Part shown: positions 1,110-41,643 of the stretch, in pieces
Numbering within the stretch: position 1 is the stretch's first letter
Layout: the number at the start of each line of letters is the position of its first letter
NCBI RefSeq assembly: GCF_021228235.1
Contig: NZ_JAJQRG010000006.1
Span: 1 to 64,000, forward strand
Direction: 5' to 3'
Length of the DNA: 64,000 bases
From: Pseudophaeobacter flagellatus
GTDB taxonomy: Bacteria > Pseudomonadota > Alphaproteobacteria > Rhodobacterales > Rhodobacteraceae
Notes under the pieces: model-generated
Databases searched by the model: none
Told to the model about the DNA's origin: nothing
The model's input: the letters and a program-made list of their open reading frames with translations, nothing else
Position numbers and translations under genes: made by a program

Positions 1110-1110
1110 G

Positions 1111-3156: not shown

Positions 3157-3245
3157 GGCGGGTCTCTCCTGGGACGGGCCTTGGGGTACGTTCAGTGAAA
3201 CGGCACACGGCTGTAAAGTACAGTCCCGGTTGCCAAGGCATGTGA

Positions 3246-4808
3246 TTAGTACCAGGCGTCTGGCACAGCGGTCTTGGTCTTGGTGATGAATTCCTGCAGC
3301 GCCTCGTCCGTGCCGGGATCCATCGCGGGCGGCTGATACTGGGCCAGCTGCGCCTTCCAGCGAAGATTGGCCCGGGTTGCCGCGTCAACGCCGCCCTGCT
3401 CATCCCAGGTTTCCCAAGGCTGGTGATCATCCAGCGCACTGTCCCAATAGGCAGTCTGGTAATGGCGCAGAGTGTGCTGGGTAGCAAAGAGATGCTGCCC
3501 TGGTCCGCCCTCGGCCAAAGCGTCAAAGCCAAGCGTGTCCTCTGTGACCTCGAACCCTTTGAGATAGGCATGCAGTGCGCCGCAGAGATCGGCATCCAGG
3601 ATGAATTTTTCGTAAGACATCGACAACAGCCCATCGAGAAACCCGGCCGAGTGCAGAATGAAATTGGCGCCACATTGCACCGCCGACATCATCGACATCA
3701 TGGATTGCTGCATCGCCTGCCCGTCTGGCAGCTTGGAGGTGGAAAAATTGCCGGCGCAGCGCAGCGGCAGCTTCAACCGGCGCGCCAGTTGTCCCATGGC
3801 CAGCGACCCCAGCGCCGGTTCAGGCGTGCCGAAGGTTGGAGAGCCAGTGCGCAGCGACATCGAGCTGATGAAAGAGCCCAGAACCGCAGGCGCGCCAGGG
3901 CGCACCAACTGGGTGATGGCACAGGATACCATGCTTTCAGCCAGACACTGCGCCACCGATCCCGCAATGGTCAGCGGTGAGACCGCACCACCCAGCAAAA
4001 ACGGCAGGTGAATCGAGCCCTGCCCCGCCGCCGCATAGGCACGGATGCCCCGCGTCGTCACCCCATCCAGCACCAGCGGCGAGGTGGTGTTGAAATTCCC
4101 CATGATGACGCAATTCTGGTCAACGAATTCAGCGCCAAACAGAATACGGCACATTTCTATACTGTCTTCGGCCCGTTCCGGCGCGGTAATCGACCCCAGA
4201 AACGCCCGGTCAGAATAGCGCATATGGGCGTAAACCATATCAAGGTGACGTTTGTTCACTGCCACATCTGTTGGCTCGCATATGGTGCCACCGGAATGAT
4301 GCAGATTGGGGCTCATCTGCGCCAGTTTCACAAAGTTCTCAAAATCCGTGATGGTGCCGTAGCGCCGCCCCCCGTCCAGATCCATCACAAAGGGCGATCC
4401 GTAAGAGGGCGCAAAAACCATGGCATCACCGCCGATCTCTACGCTGTTGGCGGGGTTGCGCGCCATCTGGGTAAAGCGCTGTGGCGCCGTCGACAGGATT
4501 TGCCGGATCATGCCCGGCTCGAACTTTAGGTTCCAGCTATCAGCCGTGAGATCCGTAACCCGCGCCCCCGCCGCACGAAACAGCGCCACCACCTCGGGAT
4601 CTTCGCGAAACTCGATACCGATCTCGGCCAGGATACGGTCAGCCGTAGCCTCTATCTGCACCAGGCTGTCTTCCGACAGGATATCATAGGTCGGGATTTT
4701 TCGGGTGATGAAGGGCGTTTTCAAGTATGTGTTCTGCCCCGGCTCTGCCGAGCGCCCGTCGCCGCGTCGCGACCGCCGCCGTCGTGATGCCACCTGTGCT
4801 TCGACCAT
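3246..4808 (-). CDS. MttB-family (trimethylamine methyltransferase-like) protein, non-pyrrolysine
   Basis: The 520-residue protein matches the MttB superfamily along its length. Founder members move a methyl group from a quaternary or tertiary amine to a corrinoid protein. The reading frame has no internal UAG, so it belongs to the non-pyrrolysine branch, whose characterised members act on glycine betaine, proline betaine or carnitine. The N-terminal 25 residues are Arg-rich and probably disordered. The ATG is preceded by GGAGGGA. No corrinoid protein or corrinoid:THF methyltransferase is encoded nearby, so the methyl acceptor is not in this window. The promoter region is shared with a divergent TetR-type gene and holds a perfect palindrome. 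Together with the downstream flavoprotein and ProC-like gene, a betaine-demethylation role is likely. Confidence 0.82.
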   Translation of the reverse strand: MVEAQVASRRRRSRRGDGRSAEPGQNTYLKTPFITRKIPTYDILSEDSLVQIEATADRILAEIGIEFREDPEVVALFRAAGARVTDLTADSWNLKFEPGMIRQILSTAPQRFTQMARNPANSVEIGGDAMVFAPSYGSPFVMDLDGGRRYGTITDFENFVKLAQMSPNLHHSGGTICEPTDVAVNKRHLDMVYAHMRYSDRAFLGSITAPERAEDSIEMCRILFGAEFVDQNCVIMGNFNTTSPLVLDGVTTRGIRAYAAAGQGSIHLPFLLGGAVSPLTIAGSVAQCLAESMVSCAITQLVRPGAPAVLGSFISSMSLRTGSPTFGTPEPALGSLAMGQLARRLKLPLRCAGNFSTSKLPDGQAMQQSMMSMMSAVQCGANFILHSAGFLDGLLSMSYEKFILDADLCGALHAYLKGFEVTEDTLGFDALAEGGPGQHLFATQHTLRHYQTAYWDSALDDHQPWETWDEQGGVDAATRANLRWKAQLAQYQPPAMDPGTDEALQEFITKTKTAVPDAWY

Positions 4809-4831
4809 ATCGTTCCCTCCATCCTACGCCA

Positions 4832-4857
4832 TTAACTTGACACAAGTGTCAAGTTAA
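4832..4857. promoter_or_regulatory. Palindromic operator between mttB-like and tetR-type genes
   Basis: Two perfect 12-bp arms, TTAACTTGACAC and GTGTCAAGTTAA, flank an AA centre. The site sits in the 105-bp gap between divergent genes, 24 bp upstream of the minus-strand methyltransferase start. Size and symmetry fit a TetR-family homodimer, most simply the product of the divergent gene starting at 4914. TTGACA within the arm could also be a -35 element, so binding would block transcription. Confidence 0.7.
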
Positions 4858-4913
4858 CATTCAGACCTGTCAACTTCGTTGCGACACGGCGATGTCGGTG
4901 TTAGGACATTGGC

Positions 4914-5543
4914 ATGACATTTCAGGACCAATCCCGCCCGCCGACCTCTGCCGAGGCGTGGCTGACAGCCGCCTATGACGCGCTGACCCTTTCAGGTGTG
5001 GAAGCGGTGAAAATCATGCCTCTGGCAAAACGGCTGGGCGTGTCGCGCACCAGTTTCTATTGGCATTTCAAGCACCGCGAGGCCCTGCTGGAAGCAATGA
5101 TCCAGCACTGGGAGGACAAGAATACCGGCACCCTGGTCGCCCGCACAGAGGCCTATGCCGCAAATGTCTGCGAAGCGATCTTCAACCTGTTTGACTGCTG
5201 GCTCGACGCCGATCTGTTTGACTCCCGGCTGGATCTGGCGATCCGCAACTGGGCGCGCAAGGATGCCGCGCTCCAGCACCGGCTGGACCTGGCGGATGCC
5301 CGCCGCGAACAGGCCATGGCCGCCATGCTGGAACGCTTTGGCTATAGCCCCAAAAGCGCGCTGGCCCGCGCACGCACCATGGTCTACACCCAGATCGGCT
5401 ATATTTCGATGCAGATCCACGAACCGGAAGATCAGCGTCTTGCGCTCATGCCCGACTATATCGAAGTCTTCACCGGCCAGCGCCCGACCCAGGTGGATAT
5501 TGACCGCTTCATGGCACGCCATCAGCCCGCCACAGGGTCGTGA
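4914..5543 (+). CDS. TetR-family transcriptional regulator
   Basis: The 209-residue protein has an N-terminal TetR-type DNA-binding domain: helices around 15-65 with the recognition part GVSRTSFYWHFKHREALL. A helical ligand-binding region of usual size follows. It is divergent from the MttB-like operon, and the gap holds a perfect 26-bp palindrome, so it probably represses that operon and itself. The ligand is unknown; the betaine or amine used by the operon is the natural guess. The gene ends 288 bases before the convergent stop of the formate dehydrogenase alpha gene. Confidence 0.85.
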   Translation: MTFQDQSRPPTSAEAWLTAAYDALTLSGVEAVKIMPLAKRLGVSRTSFYWHFKHREALLEAMIQHWEDKNTGTLVARTEAYAANVCEAIFNLFDCWLDADLFDSRLDLAIRNWARKDAALQHRLDLADARREQAMAAMLERFGYSPKSALARARTMVYTQIGYISMQIHEPEDQRLALMPDYIEVFTGQRPTQVDIDRFMARHQPATGS

Positions 5544-5769
5544 ATTCATCCTGACGGGCACGAATATGCGCCTTGGGAACCAGTGCCAGGGCCGCCTTCG
5601 ACGCGGCCTCATCGCCGGTGTAAAGCCCCCAGTCGAAACGCGCGCCGGGAAAAGCGCCTACCCTGTTCGCGTGACACCGCGCCCATAAAAGAGGGGCTCC
5701 CGCCCGTCGCATGAGGGCCCAAAGGCCCCTCTGCTCCCGTTGGGCCCGGCGAAAGCAAAAAGGGCGGCG

Positions 5770-5806
5770 CAAAATAAAAGAGGCGGCATCTTTATGACAC
5801 CGCCTC
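5770..5806 (-). terminator. Rho-independent terminator of the formate dehydrogenase operon
   Basis: On the minus strand, 25 bases after the fdsA stop, a stem GAGGCGG/CCGCCTC (5780-5806) is followed by CTTTTATTTT. This is a typical intrinsic terminator. A second, weaker GC-rich inverted repeat (GAGGGCCC near 5712 with GGCCCCTC) lies between it and the tetR-type gene and may serve the opposite strand. Confidence 0.8.
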
Positions 5807-5830
5807 GCTGATTGGCCTGGCCTTGGCAGG

Positions 5831-8605
5831 TTATTCTGCCGCCACCTGGTCATTGGCCTTTTCAACCCTGACGGCTGCAAATTTGAACTCCGGGATTTTG
5901 CCATAGGGATCCAACGCCGGGTTGGTCAGGATATTGGCAGCAGCCTCGACATAGGCAAAGGGAACAAAGACCATGTCTTCGGCAATGGCGCGATCGGCGC
6001 GGGCCATGATGTCAATTGCCCCGCGCCGGGTGCTGAGCCGCACCATCTCTCCCGGTTCGACCCCGAGGGCACGCAGGGTTTTAGGGTGCAAAGAACAGTT
6101 GGCTTCGGGTTCGACCGCATCCAGCACCTTTGATCGCCTGGTCATGGAACCGGTATGCCAATGTTCAAGCTGACGCCCGGTGGTCATGATCATCGGGTAT
6201 TCGGCATCCGGTGCCTCGTCCGGGGCAATAACGCTGGCCGGGGTAAAGCGCGCGCGCCCATCGACACGGGGGAAGCCATCGCCAAAGACAATCGCCTGAC
6301 CGGGGTCGGTGTCATGCAGAGAGGGATAGGTAATGGTCTCTGTCTCCAGCCGGTCCCAGGTGATGTTGTTCAACGATTTCATGTTGAGCTTCATCTCGGC
6401 AAAGACCTCAGAGACATCTGCATAGTCCCAGGGCAGGCCAATGCGCTGCGCCAGATCTACCGTGATCTTCCAATCTTCGCGCGCATCGCCAGGGGGCGGC
6501 ACAGCCGGGCGAACCCGCTGCACTTGACGGTTGGTATTGGACACGGTGCCGTTCTTTTCATAAAGCGCCGAGGCCGGCAGGACGATGTCGGCGTAGTTCG
6601 CCGTCTCGGTCAGAAAGATATCCTGCACGATCAGCAGATCCAGCTTGGCAAAAGCCTCGCGGGCGTGATCCACATCCGGGTCCGACATGGCCGGATTTTC
6701 GCCCTGAATATACATGCCCTTGATCATACCGGCATAGGCCTGATCGACGATCTCGGTCACGGTGAGGCCCTTTTCATTTGAAAAGTCACCGCCACCCCAG
6801 ACATCGGTGAAGGAGCGGCGCACATCATCCGAGGTGACGCTTTGGTAATCAGGCAGGAACATAGGCACCAGGCCGGCGTCCGACGCCCCCTGTACATTGT
6901 TCTGGCCACGCAGCGGGTGCAGACCGGCGCCAGGTTTGCCGACATTGCCGGTCATCAGCGCCAGGGAAATCAGGCAGCGCGAATTATCGGTGCCGTGAAT
7001 ATGCTGCGAGACCCCCATGCCCCAGAAAATCATCCCGGCATTGCCCTTGGCAAAGAGCCGCGCGGTGCGGCGCAGCTGTTCGGGCTCGATGCCGCAGATC
7101 TCGGACATCTTTTCTGGAGTAAAGTCTTTCAGGTGAGCCTTTTCGGCCTCCCAGTTTTCGGTACGGTCGCGGATATAATCGGCGTCATACAATTCTTCTT
7201 CGACGATCACATTCATGATGGCATTCAGCATCGAGACATCGGCACCGGGGCGGAATTGCAGCATCTCGGTTGCATAGCGCCGCATGCCCACGCCGCGCGG
7301 ATCCATCACGATCAGCTTGCCGCCGCGCTTGGCGAACTGCTTGAAATAGGTCGCCGCGACGGGGTGGTTTTCAATTGGGTTGGACCCGATGATGATCGCC
7401 ACATCGGCGTTTTCGATCTCGTTGAACGTCGCGGTCACCGCACCAGAGCCGACATTTTCGATCAGCGCCGTAACTGACGAGGCATGGCACAGACGGGTGC
7501 AATGGTCGACATTGTTGTGCTTGAAGCCCTGGCGGATGAACTTCTGGAACAGATAGGCCTCTTCATTGGTGCATTTGGCCGAACCAAACCCCGCAACAGA
7601 ACGCGGGTCTGCCTCGCGTAGGGCCTTGAGACGGCTACCTGCCAGATCCATCGCTTCCTCCCAAGAGGCTTCGCGGAAATGCGTTGACAGATCACCGGGA
7701 TCGACATTCAGCCCCTTGGCCGGTGCATCGTCGCGGCGGATCATGGGTTTGGTCAGCCGGTGCGGATGGTGGATATAGTCAAAACCAAAGCGACCCTTGA
7801 CGCAGAGGCGGCCTTCGTTCGCGGGGCCGTTGATACCCTCGACATATTTGACCTTGCCGTCCTTGACCTTGAGGCTGACCTTGCAGCCCACGCCGCAGAA
7901 GGGGCAGACGCTTTCGGTTTCAGAGTCAAATTCCTTGCTGTCGCCGACCTGATTGTCATCAACCACCGTCGCAGGCATCAGCGCGCCTGTCGGGCAGGCC
8001 TGCACACATTCGCCGCAGGCCACACAGGACGAGGCCCCCATAGGATCAGCGATATCAAAGGTCGGATAGGCATCATGGCCCCGGCCCGCCATGCCGATCA
8101 CGTCATTGACCTGCACTTCGCGGCAGGCCCGCACACAAAGACCACAGGAAATACAGGCGTCTAGATTGACCGACATCGCCACATGGCTGTCATCCAGCAG
8201 CGGGATGCGGCCCTGCTCCAGCTTGGGGAAACGCGACTCTGAAACCCCGTTCAGATCGGCCATGTCCCACAGGTGGCTGGACTTGTCATGCGCCTCTTCC
8301 TGCTTGGGCTGGTCTGCAACAAGCAGCTCCATCACCATCTTGCGGGCGTTTTCTGCCCGCGCATTATTGGTGGTGACCACCATGCCCTCGCTGGGTTCGC
8401 GAATGCAGGAGGCCGCCAGCGTGCGCTCACCTTCGATTTCCACCATGCAGGCACGACAATTGCCATCGGGGCGATAGCCGGGCTGCGGTTTGTGGCACAG
8501 GTGCGGGATCTTGAGGCCCCGGCCATTGGCGACTTCCCAGATGGTGAGGCCAGATTCGACGGTGACGGTTTCACCATCAAGGGTAAAAGTAATATCAGTG
8601 CTCAT
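5831..8605 (-). CDS. fdsA: NAD-dependent formate dehydrogenase, alpha subunit
   Basis: The 924-residue protein oxidises formate to CO2 at a molybdopterin site in the cytoplasm. Domains in order: 2Fe-2S ferredoxin-like (Cys37, 50, 53, 67); His-Cys cluster region; two 4Fe-4S motifs (Cys151/154/157/161 and Cys194/197/200/204); Mo-domain 4Fe-4S (Cys234, 237, 241, 268); and the large molybdopterin domains. Cys373 in TRLCHASS is at the place of the Mo-ligating Cys, so this is the Cys form, not selenocysteine. The start lies three bases after the stop of the fused gamma-beta gene, so the subunits are translationally coupled. A strong terminator follows. The usual accessory genes fdsC/fdhD and fdsD are absent here. 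Probable role: burning formate from the neighbouring demethylation pathway to make NADH. Confidence 0.95.
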   Translation of the reverse strand: MSTDITFTLDGETVTVESGLTIWEVANGRGLKIPHLCHKPQPGYRPDGNCRACMVEIEGERTLAASCIREPSEGMVVTTNNARAENARKMVMELLVADQPKQEEAHDKSSHLWDMADLNGVSESRFPKLEQGRIPLLDDSHVAMSVNLDACISCGLCVRACREVQVNDVIGMAGRGHDAYPTFDIADPMGASSCVACGECVQACPTGALMPATVVDDNQVGDSKEFDSETESVCPFCGVGCKVSLKVKDGKVKYVEGINGPANEGRLCVKGRFGFDYIHHPHRLTKPMIRRDDAPAKGLNVDPGDLSTHFREASWEEAMDLAGSRLKALREADPRSVAGFGSAKCTNEEAYLFQKFIRQGFKHNNVDHCTRLCHASSVTALIENVGSGAVTATFNEIENADVAIIIGSNPIENHPVAATYFKQFAKRGGKLIVMDPRGVGMRRYATEMLQFRPGADVSMLNAIMNVIVEEELYDADYIRDRTENWEAEKAHLKDFTPEKMSEICGIEPEQLRRTARLFAKGNAGMIFWGMGVSQHIHGTDNSRCLISLALMTGNVGKPGAGLHPLRGQNNVQGASDAGLVPMFLPDYQSVTSDDVRRSFTDVWGGGDFSNEKGLTVTEIVDQAYAGMIKGMYIQGENPAMSDPDVDHAREAFAKLDLLIVQDIFLTETANYADIVLPASALYEKNGTVSNTNRQVQRVRPAVPPPGDAREDWKITVDLAQRIGLPWDYADVSEVFAEMKLNMKSLNNITWDRLETETITYPSLHDTDPGQAIVFGDGFPRVDGRARFTPASVIAPDEAPDAEYPMIMTTGRQLEHWHTGSMTRRSKVLDAVEPEANCSLHPKTLRALGVEPGEMVRLSTRRGAIDIMARADRAIAEDMVFVPFAYVEAAANILTNPALDPYGKIPEFKFAAVRVEKANDQVAAE

Positions 8606-26647: not shown

Positions 26648-28135
26648 ATGCTGCGCGATGCACGAATGGCCGGTCTGGTGAAGCTGCGCTGCAGCCTCTG
26701 CGTCGATCACCAACACCCTTTGGTTCCGCTTTGGGAGTATAATCGCCCCGAGGAAAGGTATGATCTTTCATCACGGTTTGAGGATATCAAAGATGCCATT
26801 CTGGCTAGGAAACTCGAACAACCTCGCACAGCTCCCTCGCCCTATGATATTTGGCTCGACACACGTCTTGCGACTGGGACAGACGACACATGGCTCGCTG
26901 GTCAGTCACTCTATGCAGCAACGAAGTTCTGCACCCTTTTGGGAGCAGAACTTTTACGATTGGAAGATACATCCGACTTAGGCGAAGAGGCTCAGATTAG
27001 GCATGGCCAAGCCCTCGGCTTCAATATCGCTCGCTGTGGTGAGGTTGAAATCCGGGAAGCATTGGATGCATTGGTCTCACTCGCGAGCGGGAATACCGAC
27101 GAGCCTCACAAAGCCTTTGGAAAACTGTACGTGGAGTTGGCGCAATTTCACCTAGCCAAAGAGGATTTTGTTCCCTTTCGGAAAATCATGAGAGACTGCA
27201 TCCTTGATCACTGGCCAATAGCGCCCGGTGAAACCGTTCTCGGATACTTCCAACCTACGAGGAAATTGCATTCTGTTGGTACCGCTGCTCAAGAAGCCAA
27301 GATTGGACCTGCCCTGCTTGAACAGTTTCTAGTAGATGCCGGGGCTATTACTGCCGACGATCAACGGCCGGTCTCTCGGAAGACGTTTGACGCTGTAGCC
27401 TATGCCGATCTACTGGCAGAAGTGCCGACTTTGGTTGGTCCCGCGAGAATGCAGCACGAAATGGGGGCAACCCGTATGCAATTCAAATCACTCGCAGAGG
27501 ACGGTGTGATAAAACCTCGGATCCAGGTTGCAACGATTAACTCTCCTTGGCGCATATCCGACGGTATTGCATTGGTGGAAGAGCTCTTGGGAATTGCGCA
27601 ACCTGTGGCGCCTACTAGCACTAAATGGGAAAGTATTCAGCAGGCAAGAAAGCGCACAGGTTTGCGGGTTGGGAAGATCATCGAAGCCCTACGCAATGGT
27701 GAACTTCAGCTCGGACATTACCCTAACGTTGAAGGCTATGCTGGCTTCTGTGTTTTGAAGGCAGAAATCAATGGCATGCGACCAGCAAAACAAAAGGTCA
27801 CGGATCAAGGGTTTCTAACGGCTTCTGCATTTGGCCGGTCAGTTGGCATTCGAACATCTGGCTGGTTTAAAAAACTCGCGGCAGGGGGCCATACCCCTGA
27901 AACCCTTACGCCACACCCGAAGGGAGGCCCTGACCAATCTTACCTCTCTGCCGACGACATCGCCCAGTTTCACAAGCGCTTTATGACCCCGGCGACGATG
28001 GAGCAAAAATTTGGTCAACATCGGAAGATATTGCTGGGGAAGCTGAGAGCAGCCGGAGTGGAAATCTTTGCACCAAATGGAGAAGATTATGGGTCGGTTT
28101 ATCTCCGCAATGAGGTAGAAGCGGTCTTAGAGTGA
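26648..28135 (+). CDS. TniQ-like transposition protein, probably 5'-truncated
   Basis: The 495-residue protein resembles the TniQ family (target selection in Tn7/Tn5053-type transposons). The clearest part is the middle: RDCILDHWPIAPGETVLG followed by RKLHSVGTAAQEAKIGPALLEQFLVDAG, a pattern I recall from alphaproteobacterial TniQ proteins. The N-terminus retains only a fragment of the expected zinc-ribbon region (CSLCVDHQHPLVPLW, residues 15-29); the usual first about 100 residues are missing. No tniA or tniB is nearby. It is probably a remnant or a co-opted HTH protein. The 3' half looks intact, with several HTH-like segments. Confidence 0.55.
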   Translation: MLRDARMAGLVKLRCSLCVDHQHPLVPLWEYNRPEERYDLSSRFEDIKDAILARKLEQPRTAPSPYDIWLDTRLATGTDDTWLAGQSLYAATKFCTLLGAELLRLEDTSDLGEEAQIRHGQALGFNIARCGEVEIREALDALVSLASGNTDEPHKAFGKLYVELAQFHLAKEDFVPFRKIMRDCILDHWPIAPGETVLGYFQPTRKLHSVGTAAQEAKIGPALLEQFLVDAGAITADDQRPVSRKTFDAVAYADLLAEVPTLVGPARMQHEMGATRMQFKSLAEDGVIKPRIQVATINSPWRISDGIALVEELLGIAQPVAPTSTKWESIQQARKRTGLRVGKIIEALRNGELQLGHYPNVEGYAGFCVLKAEINGMRPAKQKVTDQGFLTASAFGRSVGIRTSGWFKKLAAGGHTPETLTPHPKGGPDQSYLSADDIAQFHKRFMTPATMEQKFGQHRKILLGKLRAAGVEIFAPNGEDYGSVYLRNEVEAVLE

Positions 28136-28342
28136 CACCTCTCAGCCCATGTTGCAGGCAAGAAACAACGAAGTCGCGGGAAGAGCATGCGCCGGTCTTC
28201 TATGATGGGGCCAATTTCTTATCAGCAAAAACGCACAGATCGTGAAGGTTGAAGGGCTAGAAGTGCAATGACAAACTTCTTGACAGGAATTCGCATGAAA
28301 CAAGCTGAATTCACACACTTATGCCCAATTGGCAATGGGAAG

Positions 28343-28369
28343 AAATGGCGAGCCGTGGAGAACCCAATA
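28343..28369. repeat. attL: 27-bp direct repeat, left end of mini-prophage
   Basis: A perfect 27-bp copy of 32244-32270. It contains the last 14 bases of the tRNA-Arg gene including CCA (read on the minus strand) plus 13 bases beyond its 3' end. It is the split-off copy produced by integration into the tRNA gene. Confidence 0.88.
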
Positions 28370-28484
28370 CCCTAATTTAAAACAGCGGGTTAGCCTGCCG
28401 AACTCAAAAAATCCGCCCCTTGAAAACACACAGAATATTCGCCGCTTGGCGAACATTTCCGAAGCCCCGAAACGGCGTTCGGCA

Positions 28485-28721
28485 ATGTCACAATTTGGCA
28501 AAGCTACCCATAAGAAAGTCGCGCGGTCCATTGGCTACGCCCTGACTCTGGGCACCCCCTGCGCCTGGAATAAGCTCTCGCTGATTTTGTTGGCCCGCCT
28601 TTCCAAAAAGGAACGGGCTGGACTGACCTATGCGGCTTTGATGAGCCTGGACAAAGACACCGCCTACGAGGTGGCAACGCTTGCCGTGTTCGGTGTTGCC
28701 AAAGGGGAGCGGGTTCAATGA
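28485..28721 (+). CDS. Small hypothetical protein of the mini-prophage (78 aa)
   Basis: Not recognised as a named family. The basic N-terminus (KATHKKVARSIGYALTLG) and the helical pattern ARLSKKERAGLTYAALMSLDKDTAYEVATL suggest a small soluble helical protein, perhaps DNA-binding. A longer frame from 28329 would run through the att repeat; ATG 28485 is the likely start. The stop overlaps the next gene as ATGA, so both are translationally coupled. A TTCGCC-gctt-GGCGAA inverted repeat at 28438-28453 lies 31 bases upstream and could be an operator. Confidence 0.65.
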   Translation: MSQFGKATHKKVARSIGYALTLGTPCAWNKLSLILLARLSKKERAGLTYAALMSLDKDTAYEVATLAVFGVAKGERVQ

Positions 28722-28969
28722 TGACCGCTCGCCCCCTCGAAGAGCTGCTGTTCTACATGAATACCGTTGCAAAGCAGGCTTCCAGTGAATGGGAAGCCAA
28801 CTTTGCCCGCTCGATCTTGAGGCAGTCAAAGAGACCCACCTGGAACCCTTCTGAAAAACAACTCTGGACCATGCAGCGCATGGTTTCGGACCTCTTCTCG
28901 CCAAACGGCTTCAACGCCGATGCTGACATTGACCTGATCGATACAGGAGACCGGCACGACGCAGCCTAA
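28718..28969 (+). CDS. Small hypothetical protein of the mini-prophage (83 aa)
   Basis: Not recognised. The N-terminus MMTARPLEELLFYMNTVAKQASSEWEANFA is helical; the C-terminal part is acidic (DADIDLIDTGD). It is coupled to the preceding gene by an ATGA overlap. It ends 10 bases before a strongly structured stretch. The function may be replication, control or packaging of the element; no motif decides. Confidence 0.65.
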   Translation: MMTARPLEELLFYMNTVAKQASSEWEANFARSILRQSKRPTWNPSEKQLWTMQRMVSDLFSPNGFNADADIDLIDTGDRHDAA

Positions 28970-28978
28970 CCGCGTCCG

Positions 28979-29214
28979 TATCAAGTGTGCGGACGACTGG
29001 AGGCGCTTGATATGTATTCCCCGTTACCTTGAGTGGGTCGTAACGGAAGGGCAGCCCTGAAGCTCAATGCCCGAGACCCTGCTGCCTGCCTAGGCGGTAA
29101 AGATGTGAGCGAACTGTGACGAAGGCCTTTGCGATCACAGTGCCCGAAACGATGGCCCGGCTCCGTTGAGCAGGACTTCACGAGAGGGATAGGGACGGGT
29201 TGGGGCAATGCCCC
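28979..29214 (+). ncRNA. Candidate structured RNA inside the mini-prophage
   Basis: Five or more perfect stems follow one another in 236 bases without a reading frame. They are TATCAAG/CTTGATA (28979-28985 / 29006-29012), CCGTTAC/GTAACGG (29021-29027 / 29040-29046) and GGCAG/CTGCC (29050-29054 / 29082-29086). Then come the palindrome GCCTAGGC (29088-29095), CTGTGA/TCACAG with inner GAAGG/CCTTT pairing (29114-29140), and GGGGC-AAT-GCCCC (29202-29214). Unpaired purine-rich runs such as GGTAAAGATGTGAGCGAAC lie between them. The strand is inferred from the flanking genes. It could be an OMEGA/HEARO-like RNA without its nuclease, an intron-like ribozyme or a phage regulatory RNA; I cannot decide. 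Confidence 0.55.
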
Positions 29215-29258
29215 GGCCTTAGTCGCCCTATGCCCTCAACTCCAGCCCTCACCATTGA

Positions 29259-29759
29259 GCAGGGGGTAAAGGGCGACGCCTGGAGGGCTATGCCGCCCTG
29301 TTCGGCGCTGAGGCCCGGATTGGTGGCGGCATGGTTGAAACCATCGCCCAAGGGGCCTTTTCTCGAACCTTGGAAGAGCGCGGCGACATTCTGGCCTTGG
29401 TCGACCATGACCCGCACCGCGTTTTGGCCCGCACCCGTTCCGGCACCCTCCGCCTGTCCCAGGACGCGCGAGGGTTGGCCTTTGATTTGGATGTGCCAGA
29501 TACCCAGGCGGGCCGCGACGTGTTGGCATTGGCTGAGCGAAACGATTTGGGCGGTATGTCCTTTGGATTTTCGGCGCGTGATGAGCATTTGGACGGAAGC
29601 CAGCGCGAACTCCGTGCTGTTGATCTGTTTGAAATCAGCGTTGTGTCTGCCTTTCCGGCCTATGAGGGCACCGTGATCAATGCGCGGGCAAAAGATAGTT
29701 CCTTCCTGTTCCGCAGCGCCGCAGCACGTCGCTTGCGCCTTTTGGAGTTGGTGAAATGA
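29259..29759 (+). pseudogene. HK97-family prohead protease, 5' end disrupted
   Basis: The frame reads RRLEGYAALFGAEARIGGG, then MVETIAQGAFSRTLEERGDILALVDHDPHRVLARTRSGTLRL and later GMSFGFSARDEH with VDLFEISVVSAFPAY. These match the core of HK97 prohead proteases, including the His and Ser regions. Family similarity begins before the first ATG (29331) and runs back to a TGA at 29256, with no start codon between. The true N-terminus was therefore probably lost when the structured region came to lie upstream. A shortened product from ATG 29331 (142 aa) is possible. Its stop overlaps the portal gene start (ATGA). Confidence 0.72.
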
Positions 29760-30973
29760 GCTTTCTTTCCCGTATCCTTGGCCGCGAGACACGCGAAACC
29801 GTTGCCACCTCCGACCCTAGCTTGGCAGAATTTCTGGGGCACCGCGCCAACGGCACTGGCGTTGTTGATCCAAACCGGGCCTCTGGCTTGGCAGTCGCAC
29901 AGGCGTGTATTTCTGTCATCAGCCAAAACTTGGCAGCTATGCCGATGAACCTCTATCAGCGCAGCAGCAACGGCGGGCGAGATCGGGCGGCAAGCCATCC
30001 GTTGCACGGCGTTTTGCATGACCGCTTCAATAGCCAAATGACCGCCTTTGAAGGGCGAGAATTTTTGCTGGTCTCGCTGCTGACCAACGGCAATGGCTAT
30101 GCCCGGATCGAGACAAACGCGCGCGGCCAAGTGGTGGCGCTACACCCTCTGCACCCGTCCAATGTCGCGGTTGAGCGGTTGGAAAATGGCCGCTTGCGCT
30201 ACCGCGTCAGCAATGCGCGCGGCCAGTCTAAGATCCTTTTGCAGGATGAAATTTTGCACCTGCGCTATCGTCTTGCCAATGACGGCGTGATGGGTGTTTC
30301 GCCCATCCAGCTTGCCCGCGAAACCTTTTCTCTGGCGCTGACCCAGCAGGACCAGGCCACGCGGCAGGCCAGCCGTGCCTTCCGTGCCGAAGGCGCTCTG
30401 GTGTTTCCGCAGTCCATCGGTGGCGACAAGAAGGCGGACGCATTGCAGATCCTGCGCGACCGTGTGGAAGGTCAGGTCGAAACCTCTGGGATCTTGGTTC
30501 TGGATGGCGGCGTGGATTGGAAAAGCCTGTCTATCACGGCCAAAGATGCTGAATTTCTGGATAGCCGCAAGCTGTCCAATATGGACGTGGCCCGCACCTT
30601 CAGCGTTCCACCAACTGTTGTGGGGATCACCGACAACGCCACCTATTCCAACGTGGATGGCGAAAGCCGCGCCCTTGTGGTGCGCTGCCTTGCCCCCATG
30701 GCCCGCCGTATCGAGCAGGCTATGAACGCGGCTTTGCTGACCGTAGAGGGCCGCAAACGGTTCTTTGTGGAGCATGATCTGGCAGGGCTGATGCGCGGCG
30801 ATATCAAGGCCCGCTATGAGGCCTATCGCATCGGCAGGGAATGGGGCTGGCTTAGCCCCAACGAGATCCGCGCCTGGGAAAACCTGAGCGAGATTGAAGG
30901 CGGTGGTGAGTACCTGTCGCCTCTGAATATGACTGTGCTCGGCGAGCGGGAGGGCGAAGACGATGGCGAATAG
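29756..30973 (+). CDS. HK97-family phage portal protein
   Basis: The 405-residue protein has the portal pattern: GVVDPNRASGLAVAQACISVISQNLAAMPMNLYQR near the N-terminus, a central LHPLHPSNVAVE region, and DGGVDWKSLSITAKDAEFLDSRKLSNMDVARTFSVPPTVVG with the stem and clip parts behind it. Portals form the dodecamer through which phage DNA is packed and ejected. It is of normal length and looks intact. It follows the protease gene, the reverse of the usual portal-protease-capsid order, and no terminase or capsid gene is present. Confidence 0.9.
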   Translation: MSFLSRILGRETRETVATSDPSLAEFLGHRANGTGVVDPNRASGLAVAQACISVISQNLAAMPMNLYQRSSNGGRDRAASHPLHGVLHDRFNSQMTAFEGREFLLVSLLTNGNGYARIETNARGQVVALHPLHPSNVAVERLENGRLRYRVSNARGQSKILLQDEILHLRYRLANDGVMGVSPIQLARETFSLALTQQDQATRQASRAFRAEGALVFPQSIGGDKKADALQILRDRVEGQVETSGILVLDGGVDWKSLSITAKDAEFLDSRKLSNMDVARTFSVPPTVVGITDNATYSNVDGESRALVVRCLAPMARRIEQAMNAALLTVEGRKRFFVEHDLAGLMRGDIKARYEAYRIGREWGWLSPNEIRAWENLSEIEGGGEYLSPLNMTVLGEREGEDDGE

Positions 30974-31136
30974 AAAAGCGCTTGTTACCCAGTCCGAATT
31001 GACGCGCTGCCTGAAGGCGCATCGAGACGCTGGAATCCCAATCGCCAAAACTGAAACCCGGCCAGATGGCACGATTGTTGTCTACTCGATTGACCTTAAC
31101 CGCCGGGAAAATGATAACCCATGGGACAAGCCGTGA
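30963..31136 (+). CDS. Small integrase-linked protein (57 aa)
   Basis: This gene overlaps both neighbours: 11 bases with the portal stop and 16 with the integrase start at 31121. The product begins MANRKALVTQSELTRCLKAH, continues with ETRPDGTIVVYSIDL and ends WDKP. The first part could be a short helix-turn-helix and the second a beta hairpin. Comparable tiny genes occur ahead of integrases in Rhodobacteraceae, as far as I recall. Excisionase or regulator of integration is a reasonable guess, not shown. Confidence 0.7.
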   Translation: MANRKALVTQSELTRCLKAHRDAGIPIAKTETRPDGTIVVYSIDLNRRENDNPWDKP

Positions 31137-32245
31137 AGCACAAAATTCAATATCCCGGCGCGACTCCTTACCAGGACCGGCATGGCAAACGCCGCTGGCG
31201 CTTTCGTAAGGGCGGCTTTTCTGCCGAATTGGGTACTGATTACGGCTCAGACGAATTTATCTCGCGCTATGAAGCTGCACTCAAGGGCCATCGCGTACGC
31301 GGATTGATCGGTGCGGATAGGACGGTTCCGGGAAGCGTCTCCGCACTGGTCGCCTCCTGGTATCGCTCGCCTGAGTTTCTGGATCTCGCAGATAGCACGA
31401 AACGGAATTACCGAGGCATTATCGAAAAATTCCGCGAAAAGCATGGCAAGAAACCGATTGCTCAACTTGAACGCCGCCACGTCCAGGCGATGCTTGCGGA
31501 AAAAGCGGAAACCCCTGCCGCAGCGAATAACCTTCGCAAGCGACTGATCCAGCTATTGGATCACGCTATCAGCTTGGATTGGCGTGGGGACAATCCTGTT
31601 CGGGCGACTAAGCCCTATCGTAACACCGGGACTGGTTTCCATTCTTGGGAAGAAAAAGAGATCGCGCAGTTTTTTGCGATCCACAAACCCGGCACATTGG
31701 CCCACCGAGCAGTTACCTTGATGCTCTACACAGGCGCGGCCCGCGTGGATGCCGTGCAACTTGGTCCTGAAAACTTGCGGGGCGACCGAATTGAATATCG
31801 CCGTCAGAAAACAGCCCGTTCGGGTGGTATCAAGGTAAGCATCCCCCTTCACGCCGATCTGGCAGAAGTCTTGGATGCTTTGCCGGATGCCGGGTCCTTT
31901 CTAGCAACAAGCAATGGCAAAACACGCTCTGCGGCCGGATTGGGCAATGCGATGCGGGACTGGTGCAATGAAGCAGGCCTGCCCAAATGCAGCTCACATG
32001 GCTTGCGTAAAGCCTGTGCCCGCAGATTGGCAGAGGCCCAAGCCACCACGCATGAAATCGCATCTGTAACCGGCCACAAAACACTGGCTTTGGTGCAGCT
32101 CTATACCGAAGCAGCCGGTCGCGAAGAGTTGGCAAATTCTGCAATGGAAAAGCTGATTGCCCGCCCAAACGGAAATAAAAACGTGACGAACCGAGCAGGA
32201 AAGTTCGCCAAGAGCGCAGATAAGTATATGAAAGGACAGGAATAA
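31121..32245 (+). CDS. Tyrosine integrase of the mini-prophage
   Basis: The 374-residue site-specific recombinase has an N-terminal AT-hook-like/arm-binding part (DRHGKRRWRFRKGG) and a SAM-like core-binding domain (about 65-150). The catalytic domain shows Arg in TGAARVDAVQL, HxxR in SSHGLRKACARR, GHK and the Tyr nucleophile in LALVQLYTEAAG. It should act at the 3' end of the adjacent tRNA-Arg gene, as the 27-bp repeats show. An alternative GTG start at 31133 overlaps the stop of the small upstream gene as GTGA. The TAA stop lies in the right att repeat. Confidence 0.93.
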   Translation: MGQAVKHKIQYPGATPYQDRHGKRRWRFRKGGFSAELGTDYGSDEFISRYEAALKGHRVRGLIGADRTVPGSVSALVASWYRSPEFLDLADSTKRNYRGIIEKFREKHGKKPIAQLERRHVQAMLAEKAETPAAANNLRKRLIQLLDHAISLDWRGDNPVRATKPYRNTGTGFHSWEEKEIAQFFAIHKPGTLAHRAVTLMLYTGAARVDAVQLGPENLRGDRIEYRRQKTARSGGIKVSIPLHADLAEVLDALPDAGSFLATSNGKTRSAAGLGNAMRDWCNEAGLPKCSSHGLRKACARRLAEAQATTHEIASVTGHKTLALVQLYTEAAGREELANSAMEKLIARPNGNKNVTNRAGKFAKSADKYMKGQE

Positions 32246-32270
32246 TGGGAAGAAATGGCGAGCCGTGGAG
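32244..32270. repeat. attR: 27-bp direct repeat, right end of mini-prophage
   Basis: A perfect copy of 28343-28369. It overlaps the integrase stop codon at its left side and the 3' end of the intact tRNA-Arg gene at its right side. Confidence 0.88.
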
Positions 32271-32333
32271 GACTCGAACCCCCGACCTGAGAATTAGAAG
32301 TTCCCTGCTCTAATCCAGCTGAGCTAACGGCCC
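32256..32333 (-). tRNA. tRNA-Arg(UCU)
   Basis: Read on the minus strand, a full cloverleaf is formed. The acceptor GGGCCGT pairs with ACGGCTC (one G-U pair), the D stem is GCTC/GAGC, and the anticodon stem GGGAA/TTCTC encloses loop CTTCTAA with anticodon TCT. The T arm is GGGGG-TTCGAGT-CCTCC, the discriminator is G and CCA is encoded. It reads AGA. Its 3' end is the integration site of the adjacent mini-prophage and stays intact after integration. Confidence 0.95.
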
Positions 32334-32705: not shown

Positions 32706-34493
32706 TCAGAACGCCGCCCCAAAGCAGGCGGCAAAACCAAGGGCGGCAAGCAGCATCCGCAGCGGCAGACGCAACCGCCCGATAAGAGCGTATGACAGAC
32801 AGGTCAGGCCCGTGCCGATCAGGACAAAGGCTTTGACGGCCCCAAATGGATCGGTCGTGAGACGGATCAAATCGGGGTTTGCAATCATCGCCAGCGGAAT
32901 CACATAGAGCCCAACCCCCAGCGCCATCGCCGTCAGCGCCACCTTCAGCCAGTTCTCTCCGATCATGCCGGCCGCGATAAAGACGGCGCCGCAGACAGGG
33001 GGCGTAATGGTTGAAAGCAGTGCAAACCAAAACACAAACAGATGCGCTTGCAACGGCTCCAGCCCCAATTCCGTCAGGGCCGGGCCTGCCACCGACACGC
33101 AGATCACATAGGCAGCGGTGGTCGGGACCTCCATGCCCAGCAGCAGGCAGGCCAATGCCGTGAGCAAAAGCGCAGGCCAAAGCAGCCCGCCCGCCCCGGA
33201 CAGGATCACCGAGGTGATCTTGATGCCAAGGCCGGTGATGCCCAGCACTCCGATGATGATAGAGGCGCAGATGATAATGGAAGCAATCATCGCAACCTGC
33301 CTGCCGATCGCCGTGAAGCCACCGCCCAAACGGGCCAGGCCCTGGGTCAGGTTCATGCGCGGCGTGGCGTCAAAGAACAGCGCAGCAGCACCCGCAAGAA
33401 TAGCAAGAACAGCTGCATACTGCGGGGTAAATCCGGCGGCAAACATCGCAATCAGCAGCACCGAAAAGGGCACCAGGAAAAAGCATGAGGTCACAAAGAC
33501 CATGCGCGGGCTGGGCCGTTGGTCTTCCGGCACGGCTTTCAGTTCAAAACGTTGGGCATAGGCATTGATGCCAACCCAGACCGTCAGAAAATACAGCACC
33601 GCAGGCAGCAGCGCTGCCAGCATGATCTTCGTGTAGGGCACGCCTGTCAGTTCAACCATGACAAAGGCCCCAGCCCCCATCAAGGGCGGCATGATCTGCC
33701 CGCCGGAAGAGGCCACGGCCTCCACTGCGGCGGCCAGGCGTTTGGGATAGCCAAGCTTGGTCATCGCAGGCAAGGTTATAGCCCCTGTTGAGGCCACATT
33801 GGCCGAGGCAGAGCCAGAGATAGAGCCGAACAACGCTGAAGAAAACACCGAAACCTTGGCCGCACCACCGGTCAGACGCCCCGCAGCCGCAGCGGCCACA
33901 TTCATGAACCCCTGCCCCGCTTCGCCCGCATTCAGCACCGCGCCAAAGATCACAAAGATTGCGACAACCCCGACCGACACCCCGGTGAGACTGCCCCACA
34001 GCCCGCCTTCGGCGATAACAAGCGTGCCCAGAAAGCTGCGCAACGGGGTGCCGGCATGGCCAAATTCACCGGGGATATACTGCCCCCAAAGCCCATAAGC
34101 CAGGGCACAGAGCGCCACCAATGGCAGCGGCCAGCCGATCATCCGGCGCGCCCCCTCCATCGCGATCAGCAACAGGCTGATGGCCAACACCACCTGAAAG
34201 CCGTTTTCCAGAAAACCATATTGGTTGCGCAGCATCTGGTGGCTCAGCGCGATCCAGATACAGCCTGCAATGCCAATCACGGTAATGACCAGGCCGGACC
34301 ACCAGGCCAATGGGGTCTTGGCGGAATACAAGAATACCCAAGGCAGGATCAACGCCATGTGCAGGGGGCGCGCCACCAGATTGGGCACCAATCCGTAAAA
34401 GATCAGCCCGATGTGAAACACGGCAGTAATGGCGCCAAACAGCATCCAGACATGGCCTGCATGTGGCGCGAAGCGGAGGGATAAAGATGTCAT
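32706..34493 (-). CDS. TAXI-TRAP transporter fused permease (DctQM-like)
   Basis: The 595-residue membrane protein unites the small (about the first 4 helices) and large TRAP permease parts, as is usual for TAXI systems. Gly-rich signatures such as GSISGSASANVASTGAITLPAM and PPLMGAGAFVMVELTGVPYTKIM mark the DctM-like core. It uses an ion gradient for uptake of a substrate brought by the receptor encoded just upstream. Between the two genes lies a strong hairpin. C4-dicarboxylates or glutamate/2-oxoglutarate-type acids are typical for TAXI systems, but the substrate here is unknown. Confidence 0.93.
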   Translation of the reverse strand: MTSLSLRFAPHAGHVWMLFGAITAVFHIGLIFYGLVPNLVARPLHMALILPWVFLYSAKTPLAWWSGLVITVIGIAGCIWIALSHQMLRNQYGFLENGFQVVLAISLLLIAMEGARRMIGWPLPLVALCALAYGLWGQYIPGEFGHAGTPLRSFLGTLVIAEGGLWGSLTGVSVGVVAIFVIFGAVLNAGEAGQGFMNVAAAAAGRLTGGAAKVSVFSSALFGSISGSASANVASTGAITLPAMTKLGYPKRLAAAVEAVASSGGQIMPPLMGAGAFVMVELTGVPYTKIMLAALLPAVLYFLTVWVGINAYAQRFELKAVPEDQRPSPRMVFVTSCFFLVPFSVLLIAMFAAGFTPQYAAVLAILAGAAALFFDATPRMNLTQGLARLGGGFTAIGRQVAMIASIIICASIIIGVLGITGLGIKITSVILSGAGGLLWPALLLTALACLLLGMEVPTTAAYVICVSVAGPALTELGLEPLQAHLFVFWFALLSTITPPVCGAVFIAAGMIGENWLKVALTAMALGVGLYVIPLAMIANPDLIRLTTDPFGAVKAFVLIGTGLTCLSYALIGRLRLPLRMLLAALGFAACFGAAF

Positions 34494-40128: not shown

Positions 40129-41643
40129 TTAATCCCCGTCTGCCACCCCGCGCATGCGCAACCGGGCGCGCCGGGCCCGATAGCTGGGCAACACCACCAG
40201 CAGGACTGCCAGCACCAGCAGCCCTAGTGTGATGGGGCGTTCCCAGATGAACGAGGGGCCATCAAACAGCTGCATCGAGCGCGAGAAGTTATCTTCAAGC
40301 ATGCCGCCCAGAATGAAGCCGATCAACAAGGGCGCCAGCGGATAGTCGGCAAAGCGCAACGCTGTGGCACAGATCCCAAAGCCAACCAGCAGCAAAAGCT
40401 CTGTTGCATTGTTCTGGCCAATATAGGCGCCCATCAGGGTAAAGAACAAAATGAACGGAATAAGGTAGGTGCGCGGCACCGACAGCACCTTGGCAATATA
40501 GGGGATCAAAGGCAGGTTCAAAACCAGCAAGACCAGATTGCCGATGAACATCGACATGATCACCGCCCAAAACACCTCTGGTTGGTCAATCATCAGCCGC
40601 GGCCCCGGTGTGACATTCAGCGCGATCAACGCCCCCAGCAGGATTGCCGTCGTGCCCGACCCCGGAATGCCCAGCGTTAGCAGCGGCACAAAAGACCCAG
40701 TACAGGCGGCGTTATTGGCAGTTTCCGGCGCTGCCAAGCCTTTGATAGAGCCCTTGCCAAATTCGTCCTGCTCGTGTTTGGGGGCGATATTACGCTCCAC
40801 CGCGTAGCCCAGAAAACTGGCAATGGTGGCGCCAGCACCCGGCAGCACCCCAATGAAGAAGCCCTGAACAGATTGCCGCCCGATCACCGGGGCAATGGCC
40901 TTGGCCTCCGCGCGGGTGATGCGCAGATCCTTGATCGCCGCGCCATCGCCCTGCTGGGTGGTCTTGGGGCGCAGCACCAGAAACAGCGCTTCGGGCAGGG
41001 CAAACATCGCCATCGCCAGGGTGATAAAGCCAAACCCAGACTGAAGATCCATAATCCCCATGGTAAAGCGCGGCAGATTGAACAGCGCACCCTCTCCCAC
41101 CGTGGCCATGATCAGGCCAAGGGTTGTCATCAGCATTGCCTTGGCAACCTGCCCGGTGCCGGCAAAGGCGGCAATCGCCGACAGACCTACAACCATCAGG
41201 GCAAAATACTCTGCCGAATGGAACAACAGGGCCACCGAAGACAGCGCCGGCGCAAAGACCATCAGCAACAGCGCACCAATTGTGCCACCGGCAAAACTGG
41301 CCACGGCTGCAATGGTCAGCGCCTTGCCCGCCTTGCCCTGTTTCGCCATCGGATAGCCATCAAAACTAGAGGCAACCGTCCCCGCCACCCCCGGCGCGTT
41401 CAGCAGGATCGACGAGGTCGAGCCACCAAAAATGGCACCATAATAGACCCCTGCCAGCAGGATCAGCGCCGCCGAAGGGTCCCCCATCGAAATCGCCACC
41501 GGGATCATGATCGCAATGATCGACATTGGCCCCAGCCCCGGCAACATGCCGATAAAGGTGCCAATCAGACAGCCGCCGATCACCATCAACAGGTTCTGCA
41601 TCGACAGCGCGGTTTGCAGACCAATCAAAAGTCCTTCAAGCAT
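40129..41643 (-). CDS. tctA: Tripartite tricarboxylate transporter, large permease (TctA)
   Basis: The 504-residue protein with about 12 membrane helices has the two TctA repeats (GCLIGTFIGMLPGLGPMSIIAIMIP near the start; VQGFFIGVLPGAGATIASFLGYAVE in the middle) and the GVYYGAIFGGSTSSILLNAPG motif. It forms the ion-coupled pathway of the TTT system. It starts one base after tctB. Citrate-like tricarboxylates are the classical substrates, but this family takes many carboxylates. Confidence 0.95.
   Translation of the reverse strand: MLEGLLIGLQTALSMQNLLMVIGGCLIGTFIGMLPGLGPMSIIAIMIPVAISMGDPSAALILLAGVYYGAIFGGSTSSILLNAPGVAGTVASSFDGYPMAKQGKAGKALTIAAVASFAGGTIGALLLMVFAPALSSVALLFHSAEYFALMVVGLSAIAAFAGTGQVAKAMLMTTLGLIMATVGEGALFNLPRFTMGIMDLQSGFGFITLAMAMFALPEALFLVLRPKTTQQGDGAAIKDLRITRAEAKAIAPVIGRQSVQGFFIGVLPGAGATIASFLGYAVERNIAPKHEQDEFGKGSIKGLAAPETANNAACTGSFVPLLTLGIPGSGTTAILLGALIALNVTPGPRLMIDQPEVFWAVIMSMFIGNLVLLVLNLPLIPYIAKVLSVPRTYLIPFILFFTLMGAYIGQNNATELLLLVGFGICATALRFADYPLAPLLIGFILGGMLEDNFSRSMQLFDGPSFIWERPITLGLLVLAVLLVVLPSYRARRARLRMRGVADGD

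What the first reader, a model, noticed from the sequence alone, without database searches (positions are those of the whole stretch)
28979..29214. Strongly structured RNA candidate between phage genes
In 236 bases without a reading frame there are at least five perfect stems, two of them 7 bp with short loops, plus purine-rich single-stranded runs between them. This is much more than chance hairpins. It sits directly before a protease gene that lost its 5' end, as if an RNA-bearing element had inserted there. OMEGA/HEARO-like RNA without its nuclease, an intron-like ribozyme and a satellite regulatory RNA all fit the position.
Basis: partly seen in the sequence, partly recalled or inferred. 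Interest (0 to 1): 0.7.

Follow-up and report, generated by a model that had tools for sequence, protein, structure and literature searches.

The report
Conserved pseudoknotted RNA of phage satellites
A roughly 290-base RNA with several pseudoknots, matching no RNA family in the library searched, is carried by small phage satellites, some phages and integrated islands of alphaproteobacteria; two copies of a short sequence inside it change together during evolution, which suggests that it pairs with DNA at its own end, perhaps to start replication.

Summary
Energy alone shows nothing (z -0.16). Comparison does: over 28974-29262, in 41 sequences (window included) aligned by sequence only, 50 pairs in 8 helices are 94.2% paired (37.0-43.6% when slid); 41 of 50 pairs show changes on both sides; several helices interlock as pseudoknots. 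No Rfam 15 family matches it. It occurs in 26 of 295 genomes of the host's family and in other alphaproteobacterial families. Of 102 distinct loci, 68 have a terminase gene downstream on the same strand; many are about 10 kb integrase-bearing satellites, 6 follow a phage helicase gene, others lie in islands. The window holds a 3.9 kb deletion relic: the protease lost its start through a deletion joined at 29269, not through an RNA insertion. A split direct repeat (29154-29173 and 29244-29262) changes in step across 73 sequences. Preferred mechanism, not shown: the RNA pairs with DNA at its own 3' end, like a replication primer. Late-operon antitermination is the main rival.

The parts
28334..28372 (+). 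left attachment-like repeat of the 3.9 kb element
   Evidence: 39-nt direct repeat, 87% identical to 32244-32282
28329..28721 (+). 130-aa ORF, resembling the first gene of related satellites (cluster 2, by reading)
   Evidence: no Pfam or PHROG family
28718..28969 (+). 83-aa ORF directly upstream of the RNA (resembles cluster 8)
   Evidence: 211 of 252 bases identical to the L088 copy; no Pfam or PHROG family
28974..29262 (+). conserved structured RNA
   Evidence: alignments and pair counts; 289 of 291 identical to L088; G-U 110 cells against A-C 24 places it on the + strand
28977..29014 (+). outer hairpin P2 (arms 28977-28988 and 29003-29014)
   Evidence: helix of 5 bp or more in 40 of 41; permuted control mean 25.4, max 33 of 41
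29000..29030 (+). helix P2b (29000-29003 with 29027-29030), interlocked with P3
   Evidence: 95.7% of cells paired, 4 of 4 pairs with changes on both sides
29022..29045 (+). helix P3 (29022-29025 with 29042-29045), interlocked with P4
   Evidence: 93.3% paired, 4 of 4 pairs with changes on both sides
29035..29078 (+). helix P4 (29035-29039 with 29073-29078)
   Evidence: 96.7% paired, 5 of 6 pairs with changes on both sides
29049..29072 (+). helix P5 (29049-29052 with 29069-29072)
   Evidence: 97.6% paired, 4 of 4 pairs with changes on both sides
29062..29110 (+). helix P6 (29062-29066 with 29106-29110), crosses P4 and P5
   Evidence: 98.0% paired, 4 of 5 pairs with changes on both sides
29079..29099 (+). 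hairpin P7
   Evidence: 86.3% paired, 3 of 4 pairs with changes on both sides
29113..29141 (+). variable hairpin P8
   Evidence: 92.9% paired, 6 of 6 pairs with changes on both sides
29154..29173 (+). internal copy of the split repeat: L-arm GGCCC, core GGCTCCG, R-arm TTGAGCAG
29187..29235 (+). long 3' hairpin P10 between the two copies
   Evidence: 93.7% of cells paired, 11 of 17 pairs with changes on both sides
29244..29262 (+). terminal copy of the split repeat: L-arm AGCCC, core TCACCA, R-arm TTGAGCAG; 3' end of conservation
29269..29270 (.). deletion junction relative to the satellite L088
   Evidence: two blastn pieces meet here with one shared base
29270..29759 (+). remnant of prohead protease without its first codons
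   Evidence: Pfam Peptidase_S78 on 29280-29756, E 4.9e-39; frame closed upstream
29756..30973 (+). phage portal protein
   Evidence: Pfam Phage_portal E 1.5e-92
31121..32245 (+). tyrosine integrase
   Evidence: Pfam Phage_integrase E 1.1e-11; PHROG integrase E 6.3e-34
32244..32282 (+). right attachment-like repeat, overlapping the tRNA-Arg gene
   Evidence: tRNA-Arg(tct) 32256-32333 minus strand

Best explanation
Shown by comparison: an RNA of about 290 nt, read from the + strand, folds into interlocked pseudoknots and is kept by selection in satellites with their own terminase and capsid genes, in some phages and in integrase islands of alphaproteobacteria; the window has one whole copy in a decayed satellite. 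Inferred: the RNA acts on the DNA of its own gene. The internal repeat has the same sequence as the terminal repeat, so it is complementary to the template strand at the RNA's 3' end. I propose that while or just after it is made, the folded RNA offers the internal repeat to that site, pairs with the template strand on both sides of the CACCA core, and leaves a stable RNA-DNA hybrid that primes DNA synthesis. That would be an origin needing no initiator protein, like RNA II of ColE1. It would let satellites without replication genes copy themselves, and fits the place after helicase and primase genes in phages.
For: RNA: pair counts, covariation list made without a structure, G-U 110 cells against A-C 24 and 92 other mismatches, and in the one close pair compared, L088, 99.3% identity of the RNA against 83.7% for the 83-aa ORF and 83.7% for the portal gene. 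Acting on a copy of itself: both copies agree in 66-73 of 73 distinct sequences at R2-R7 and 69-72 of 73 at L3-L5, with 13, 6, 11, 5 and 4 joint changes at R2, R3, L3, L4, L5; fixed alignment columns, with no search for a best match, agree (255/355 identical in 41 of 41, 244/345 in 41 of 41, 256/356 95%); no stretch inside the RNA stands out as a complementary partner of these columns. Origin: 31 bases after the annotated primase gene in Shpa; after a helicase gene in 6 of 102 loci (Pfam helicase in L158), with a Toprim-domain ORF between in L162 (E 9.3e-5, under Pfam's cut-off); no replication family among 10 proteins of satellite L088; precedent of an initiator-free, RNA-primed origin (PMC5043065, passages).
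Against: No RNA, R-loop or replication was measured. Nothing here ties the RNA to DNA rather than to a protein or a second RNA that reads both copies. The cores differ (GGCTCCG, TCACCA) and are both conserved, which plain hybrid formation does not explain. R1 and R8 agree in only 55 of 73, L1 in 49 and L2 in 15 (L2 no better than permuted); at R4-R7 the bases vary too little for a permutation to exclude chance. A purine-rich run after the terminal copy, which would favour a hybrid, is weak or missing in several islands and elsewhere often leads straight into the next gene. GC skew of Shpa is only weakly suggestive. The place before terminase in 68 of 102 loci fits a late-operon leader as well.
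Confidence: 0.4

Rival explanations
1. Leader RNA for processive antitermination: once transcribed, the folded RNA stays on RNA polymerase and lets it read through terminators into the long terminase-capsid (or cargo) operon, like put RNA of HK022, perhaps with a NusG-like partner.
For: Same-strand terminase within 7 kb downstream in 68 of 102 distinct loci and opposite-strand in 0; in phage-type contigs with enough DNA (L158, L180) it lies between helicase and terminase genes; NusG-like proteins are encoded downstream in L138 and L086 (Pfam E 1.4e-8 and 1.9e-4); put RNA acts without a protein (PMC9378689, passages).
Against: With those two NusG-like proteins as queries, phmmer over the other ORFs held found only themselves. 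Islands with type I restriction-modification cargo (L137, L146; Pfam) show no late operon. It gives no reason for the co-changing direct repeat. Size and fold differ from put (about 70 nt, two stem-loops).
Confidence: 0.27
2. A trans-acting or cis-regulatory RNA whose two repeat copies are both bound by the same partner (a protein or an antisense RNA), as in the P4 immunity RNAs (recalled).
For: Identical copies are what a common partner would select; satellite L088 carries a Cro/C1-type regulator.
Against: By BLAST clusters no protein family was seen around the RNA in satellites, islands and phages alike; remote relationships were not tested. No complementary stretch stands out inside the RNA. 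Antisense transcripts could not be tested.
Confidence: 0.2
3. A DNA site for packaging (cos/pac) with direct repeats and hairpins.
For: It lies next to HNH and terminase genes in satellites.
Against: In phage Shpa it is at 32996-33299 while the 38261-base record starts at HNH-TerS-TerL; it goes with two terminase types of different Pfam families and with islands in which no terminase was seen; pseudoknot covariation and G-U pairs point to RNA.
Confidence: 0.05
4. A mobile RNA element without its enzyme (HEARO/OMEGA, IS110-type bridge RNA, group I or II intron).
For: A split guide-like segment that matches neighbouring DNA recalls guide RNAs of transposons (recalled). The terminal-site pattern has 56 matches in 295 genomes against 5 for the pattern read backwards, more than the RNA loci alone supply.
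Against: No Rfam match; a recurring place in the elements; no enzyme gene in common seen. Of 84 site matches in newly fetched loci, 8 stand beside the RNA and 71 of the other 76 lie in open frames of 100 codons or more, so the excess looks like coding sequence, though no codon-aware control was made.
Confidence: 0.04

Closest known systems
RNA II of ColE1-type plasmids
   Same: Long RNA made by host polymerase; opens DNA and primes replication at its own template without a plasmid-encoded initiator (PMC5043065, passages). From memory, an upstream G-rich stretch of RNA II pairs with template near the origin, the same logic as the repeat here.
   Different: No Rfam similarity; here interlocked pseudoknots and a conserved split repeat; replication function not tested.
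put RNA of phage HK022
   Same: Phage-encoded structured RNA inside a transcript, active without a dedicated protein (PMC9378689, passages).
   Different: put is about 70 nt with two stem-loops downstream of early promoters; this is about 290 nt with pseudoknots, before late genes or cargo.
Capsid-forming phage satellites (cf-PICI)
   Same: Integrase plus own terminase, portal, protease and capsid genes; no tail gene among the 10 L088 proteins searched.
   Different: Helper dependence was not tested; the two searches that paired satellites with these bacteria gave no paper on such satellites of Rhodobacteraceae. What defines cf-PICI is recalled; only listings were seen.
HEARO / OMEGA RNA and IS110 bridge RNA
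   Same: Structured RNA with guide-like segments matching DNA beside it (recalled).
   Different: No nuclease or recombinase gene common to the loci was seen, no Rfam match; both arms match the same strand, unlike the bridge RNA target loop as I recall it.
GOLLD and ROOL RNAs
   Same: Ornate RNAs associated with phages (recalled).
   Different: Much larger (recalled), and no Rfam match here.

Membership tests
HEARO / OMEGA RNA | match to the Rfam HEARO model | tested here: not met
   no match at gathering score; none at E up to 10 in 28700-29500
HEARO / OMEGA RNA | IscB/IsrB-type nuclease gene beside it | tested here: inconclusive
   Pfam of six window proteins and ten L088 proteins shows none but a phage-type HNH gene in L088; neighbours of the other loci were only clustered or read by eye
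Group I or group II intron | match to Rfam intron models | tested here: not met
Group I or group II intron | interrupts a gene | tested here: not met
   the element lies between genes in the loci looked at
ColE1-type primer RNA | transcript forms a persistent hybrid with its template | not testable with these tools
   only the same-strand repeat supports it
ColE1-type primer RNA | serves as origin without an initiator protein | not testable with these tools
   no replication family in 10 proteins of satellite L088 is compatible
ColE1-type primer RNA | similarity to any Rfam family of that region | tested here: not met
   no family matched
put-type antiterminator RNA | two stem-loops of about 70 nt | tested here: not met
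   about 290 nt with 8 counted helices and pseudoknots against the description in PMC9378689
put-type antiterminator RNA | suppresses termination downstream | not testable with these tools
   none
cos/pac packaging site | lies at the ends of packaged DNA, next to terminase | tested here: inconclusive
   Shpa: 32996-33299, record begins at HNH-TerS-TerL, which speaks against it; ends were not mapped, PMC5135824 only predicts cohesive ends (passages)
Capsid-forming satellite (element) | integrase plus packaging and capsid genes without tail genes | tested here: met
   L088, L090, L080, L074 gene tables; Pfam/PHROG of 10 L088 proteins; the ends of these elements are those of the viral-contig records
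Capsid-forming satellite (element) | mobilised by a helper phage | not testable with these tools
   none

The most novel reading that the evidence does not exclude
A new class of self-addressing RNA: a pseudoknotted RNA carries a split guide, about three bases plus six to eight, that matches a site at the 3' end of its own gene and pairs with that DNA to start replication of phages, their satellites and defence islands. Guide and site change together, so each lineage has its own address, which would keep satellite and helper origins separate.
Probability: 0.3. Interest if true: 0.9.

Novelty: new variant of a known kind. Interest (0 to 1): 0.75.

Why it matters
It is a well-supported structured RNA that Rfam 15 does not hold, and in the one close pair compared it is far better conserved than the protein genes beside it. 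In phage Shpa its place is annotated as two hypothetical proteins. It gives a handle for finding satellites across alphaproteobacteria, for which my two searches found no paper. The co-changing split repeat is a sharp, testable clue to an RNA that addresses its own gene, either for replication without an initiator or for control of the late operon.

Tried and rejected
Folding energy as evidence: rejected, z -0.16 and 0.65. Rfam at low stringency: six matches, all far under the gathering scores. Protein-coding reading of the conserved 3' end (MPFAPNLTIEQ): the translations diverge right after the repeat. A precise event at the repeat in L013/L042: the RNA there is broken by what looks like an IS5-type transposase gene (read from the translation, not searched), an accident. 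Purine-rich run as a hybrid signal: weakened. Trans targets of the terminal site: 84 matches in newly fetched loci examined, 8 beside an RNA, 67 in frames of 150 codons or more, 4 in frames of 100-150, 5 elsewhere; RNA loci already held, and genome matches that were not fetched as loci, were left out, and the pattern had 56 matches against 5 for its reversed control. Blastn of distant RNAs L138 and L086 against phages added nothing beyond Shpa. Literature searches for the RNA or for satellites of this family gave nothing on point.

Rows dropped or against: of the 12 genomes matched, three (L010-L012) have only 27-39 base matches outside the RNA's conserved part. Of 61 distinct pattern hits, L016 and L041 (unrelated) and L029 (cut by the contig end) were left out, L013 and L023 failed the 3' pattern, leaving 56, reduced by similarity to 45 and 41. 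For the repeat test the terminal copy was the best 8-mer match 50-150 nt downstream, which leans towards identity; L141 was placed by hand, and L149 and L150, whose internal motif differs, were not counted. The fixed-column test has no such lean. The tree was a single FastTree run with one parsimony reconstruction. P7, P8 and P10 have 13.7, 7.1 and 6.3% unpaired cells. In one search a third identity, for the first ORF, used guessed bounds and came out at 149 of 248; I do not use it.

Full report
What was claimed and what is there. By folding energy it is not: -83.7 kcal/mol against a shuffled mean of -82.9, z -0.16, and z 0.65 for the other strand. The proof of structure comes from relatives. 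A DNA search of 295 genomes of the same family gave matches in 12, the window's own included; eight loci (L002-L009) align with the window over about 28974-29262, three others have only short matches elsewhere. A pattern from the most conserved stretch then found 38 loci in genome contigs and 40 in viral contigs, 61 distinct hits after adding the earlier loci and removing duplicates. The named loci show the host family to be Rhodobacteraceae (titles; the window's genome itself is unnamed).

The structure. On an alignment made from sequence alone (41 sequences under 90% identity, window included) I named 50 pairs in 8 helices. 94.2% of 2014 cells form standard pairs; slid versions give 37.0-43.6%; 41 of 50 pairs have changes on both sides; covariation score 0.488 against 0.078-0.113 slid and 0.165 shuffled. 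The helices were read from covariation in the same sequences, so part of the excess over slid versions is by construction, but compensatory changes such as GGGATC/GATCCC to GATCCC/GGGATC or GGTTG/CAACC to GCTCG/CGAGC are direct. P2b crosses P3, P3 crosses P4, and P6 crosses P4 and P5, so the RNA is a chain of pseudoknots, which a nested energy fold cannot show. An outer hairpin P2 of variable sequence is present in 40 of 41 (permuted control mean 25.4, maximum 33). Among the cells of the 50 pairs 110 are G-U, 24 A-C and 92 other mismatches, so the + strand is the RNA. Against L088 the RNA is 289 of 291 identical, while the 83-aa ORF (211 of 252) and the portal gene (1019 of 1218) are each 83.7% identical. 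Rfam 15 has no match at the element in the window or in 13 related loci; the matches found are a Cis8 sRNA and a tRNA elsewhere in the window and a tRNA and a serC leader elsewhere in two loci.

Where it lives. With a covariance model of the core it is found in 26 of 295 genomes of the family, 9 of 385 of the class sample and 5 of 398 of the phylum sample, the window's own genome counted in each; by the kinship shown all hits are of the window's family or class. I examined 102 distinct loci: 68 have a terminase large subunit on the same strand within 7 kb downstream, none on the opposite strand; 38 show an integrase-like gene and 6 a helicase gene upstream; 70 of the 102 hold more than 3 kb of downstream DNA, so absences are lower bounds (assignment by BLAST clusters, one member of each terminase cluster checked by Pfam). 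Many viral-contig records with it are 9-14 kb long, in the order small genes, RNA, HNH or small terminase-like gene, large terminase, regulators, capsid, protease, portal, integrase. For L088, ten proteins were searched: HNH, terminase, Cro/C1 regulator, capsid and integrase were found, with no replication family. Two packaging modules of different Pfam families occur with the same RNA: TerL of L088, and GpA terminase with lambda-type portal in L077. In phage Shpa the RNA is at 32996-33299, 31 bases after the annotated primase gene; in L158, L162, L178, L180 and L184 it also follows a helicase gene, with terminase further downstream in L158 and L180. Further off, in L137, L139, L144, L146, L148, L149 and L150, it follows an integrase-like gene (BLAST; Pfam for L137); in L137 and L146 the next large genes are type I restriction-modification subunits (Pfam).

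The window copy. The window element runs between two attachment-like repeats, 28334-28372 and 32244-32282, the second at a tRNA-Arg gene. It keeps the two small ORFs, the RNA, a truncated protease, the portal and the integrase. Compared with L088 it lacks what is 993-6654 of that contig read in the RNA's direction; the pieces meet at window 29269, seven bases past the RNA's last conserved base, and the protease loses its start. So I infer that the RNA was there first and a deletion brought it next to the protease. Only one copy was found in the host genome.

The repeat. The RNA ends in a sequence that repeats an internal stretch: L-arm, core GGCTCCG, R-arm inside; L-arm, core TCACCA, R-arm at the end, in most loci 83-97 nt apart, 73 in L153. 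Across 73 distinct cores on a tree built without these columns, both copies agree in 71 of 73 at R2 (permuted mean 37.2, maximum 50) with 13 joint changes, 66 at R3 (maximum 55) with 6, 69 at L3 (maximum 45) with 11, 72 at L4 (maximum 67) with 5, 71 at L5 (maximum 69) with 4; R4, R6 and R7 agree in all 73 with 3, 2 and 2 joint changes, but are nearly invariant; R1 and R8 agree in 55, L1 in 49 and L2 in 15. In fixed alignment columns the best partner of each variable repeat column is its twin, with the same base, not a complementary one. So something reads both copies, or one copy reads the DNA strand opposite the other.

Mechanism. The reading I commit to is that the RNA pairs with its own template at the terminal copy and primes replication, by analogy with RNA II of ColE1 (passages of PMC5043065; the upstream G-rich contact in RNA II is recalled). 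Steps shown by comparison: RNA, fold, co-change, place. Steps inferred: pairing with DNA, priming, use by satellites. Against it stand the conserved, different cores, the lack of a hybrid-favouring run in several islands and the frequent place before terminase. Antitermination by a put-like RNA is the main rival (passages of PMC9378689), supported by two NusG-like genes downstream. Papers: PMC5043065, PMC9378689, PMC10803314, PMC6536676 and PMC5135824 were seen as passages only; others as search listings.

Noticed in passing
window 40478-40605 (+): Rfam match to the Ruegeria Cis8 sRNA, 77.4 bits, gathering 58.
   Followed up: no
L138 about 2.9 kb and L086 about 0.7 kb downstream of the RNA: NusG-like proteins encoded downstream of the RNA (Pfam).
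   Followed up: partly
L137 and L146 downstream of the RNA: Integrase islands with type I restriction-modification genes as cargo.
   Followed up: partly
L042 / L013: A copy of the RNA cut by an IS5-like insertion just after the internal repeat.
   Followed up: partly
Paracoccus phage Shpa 33048-33443: gp47 and gp48, annotated as hypothetical proteins, overlap the RNA at 32996-33299 and may not be genes.
   Followed up: no
window 28334-28372 and 32244-32282: Attachment-like repeats at a tRNA-Arg gene delimit a 3.9 kb satellite relic.
   Followed up: yes
window 26648-28135 (+): A 495-aa ORF just outside the relic, not identified.
   Followed up: no
L069 about 0.66 kb and 2.5 kb downstream of the RNA core: The same 60-residue start of an ORF appears twice in this viral contig.
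   Followed up: no
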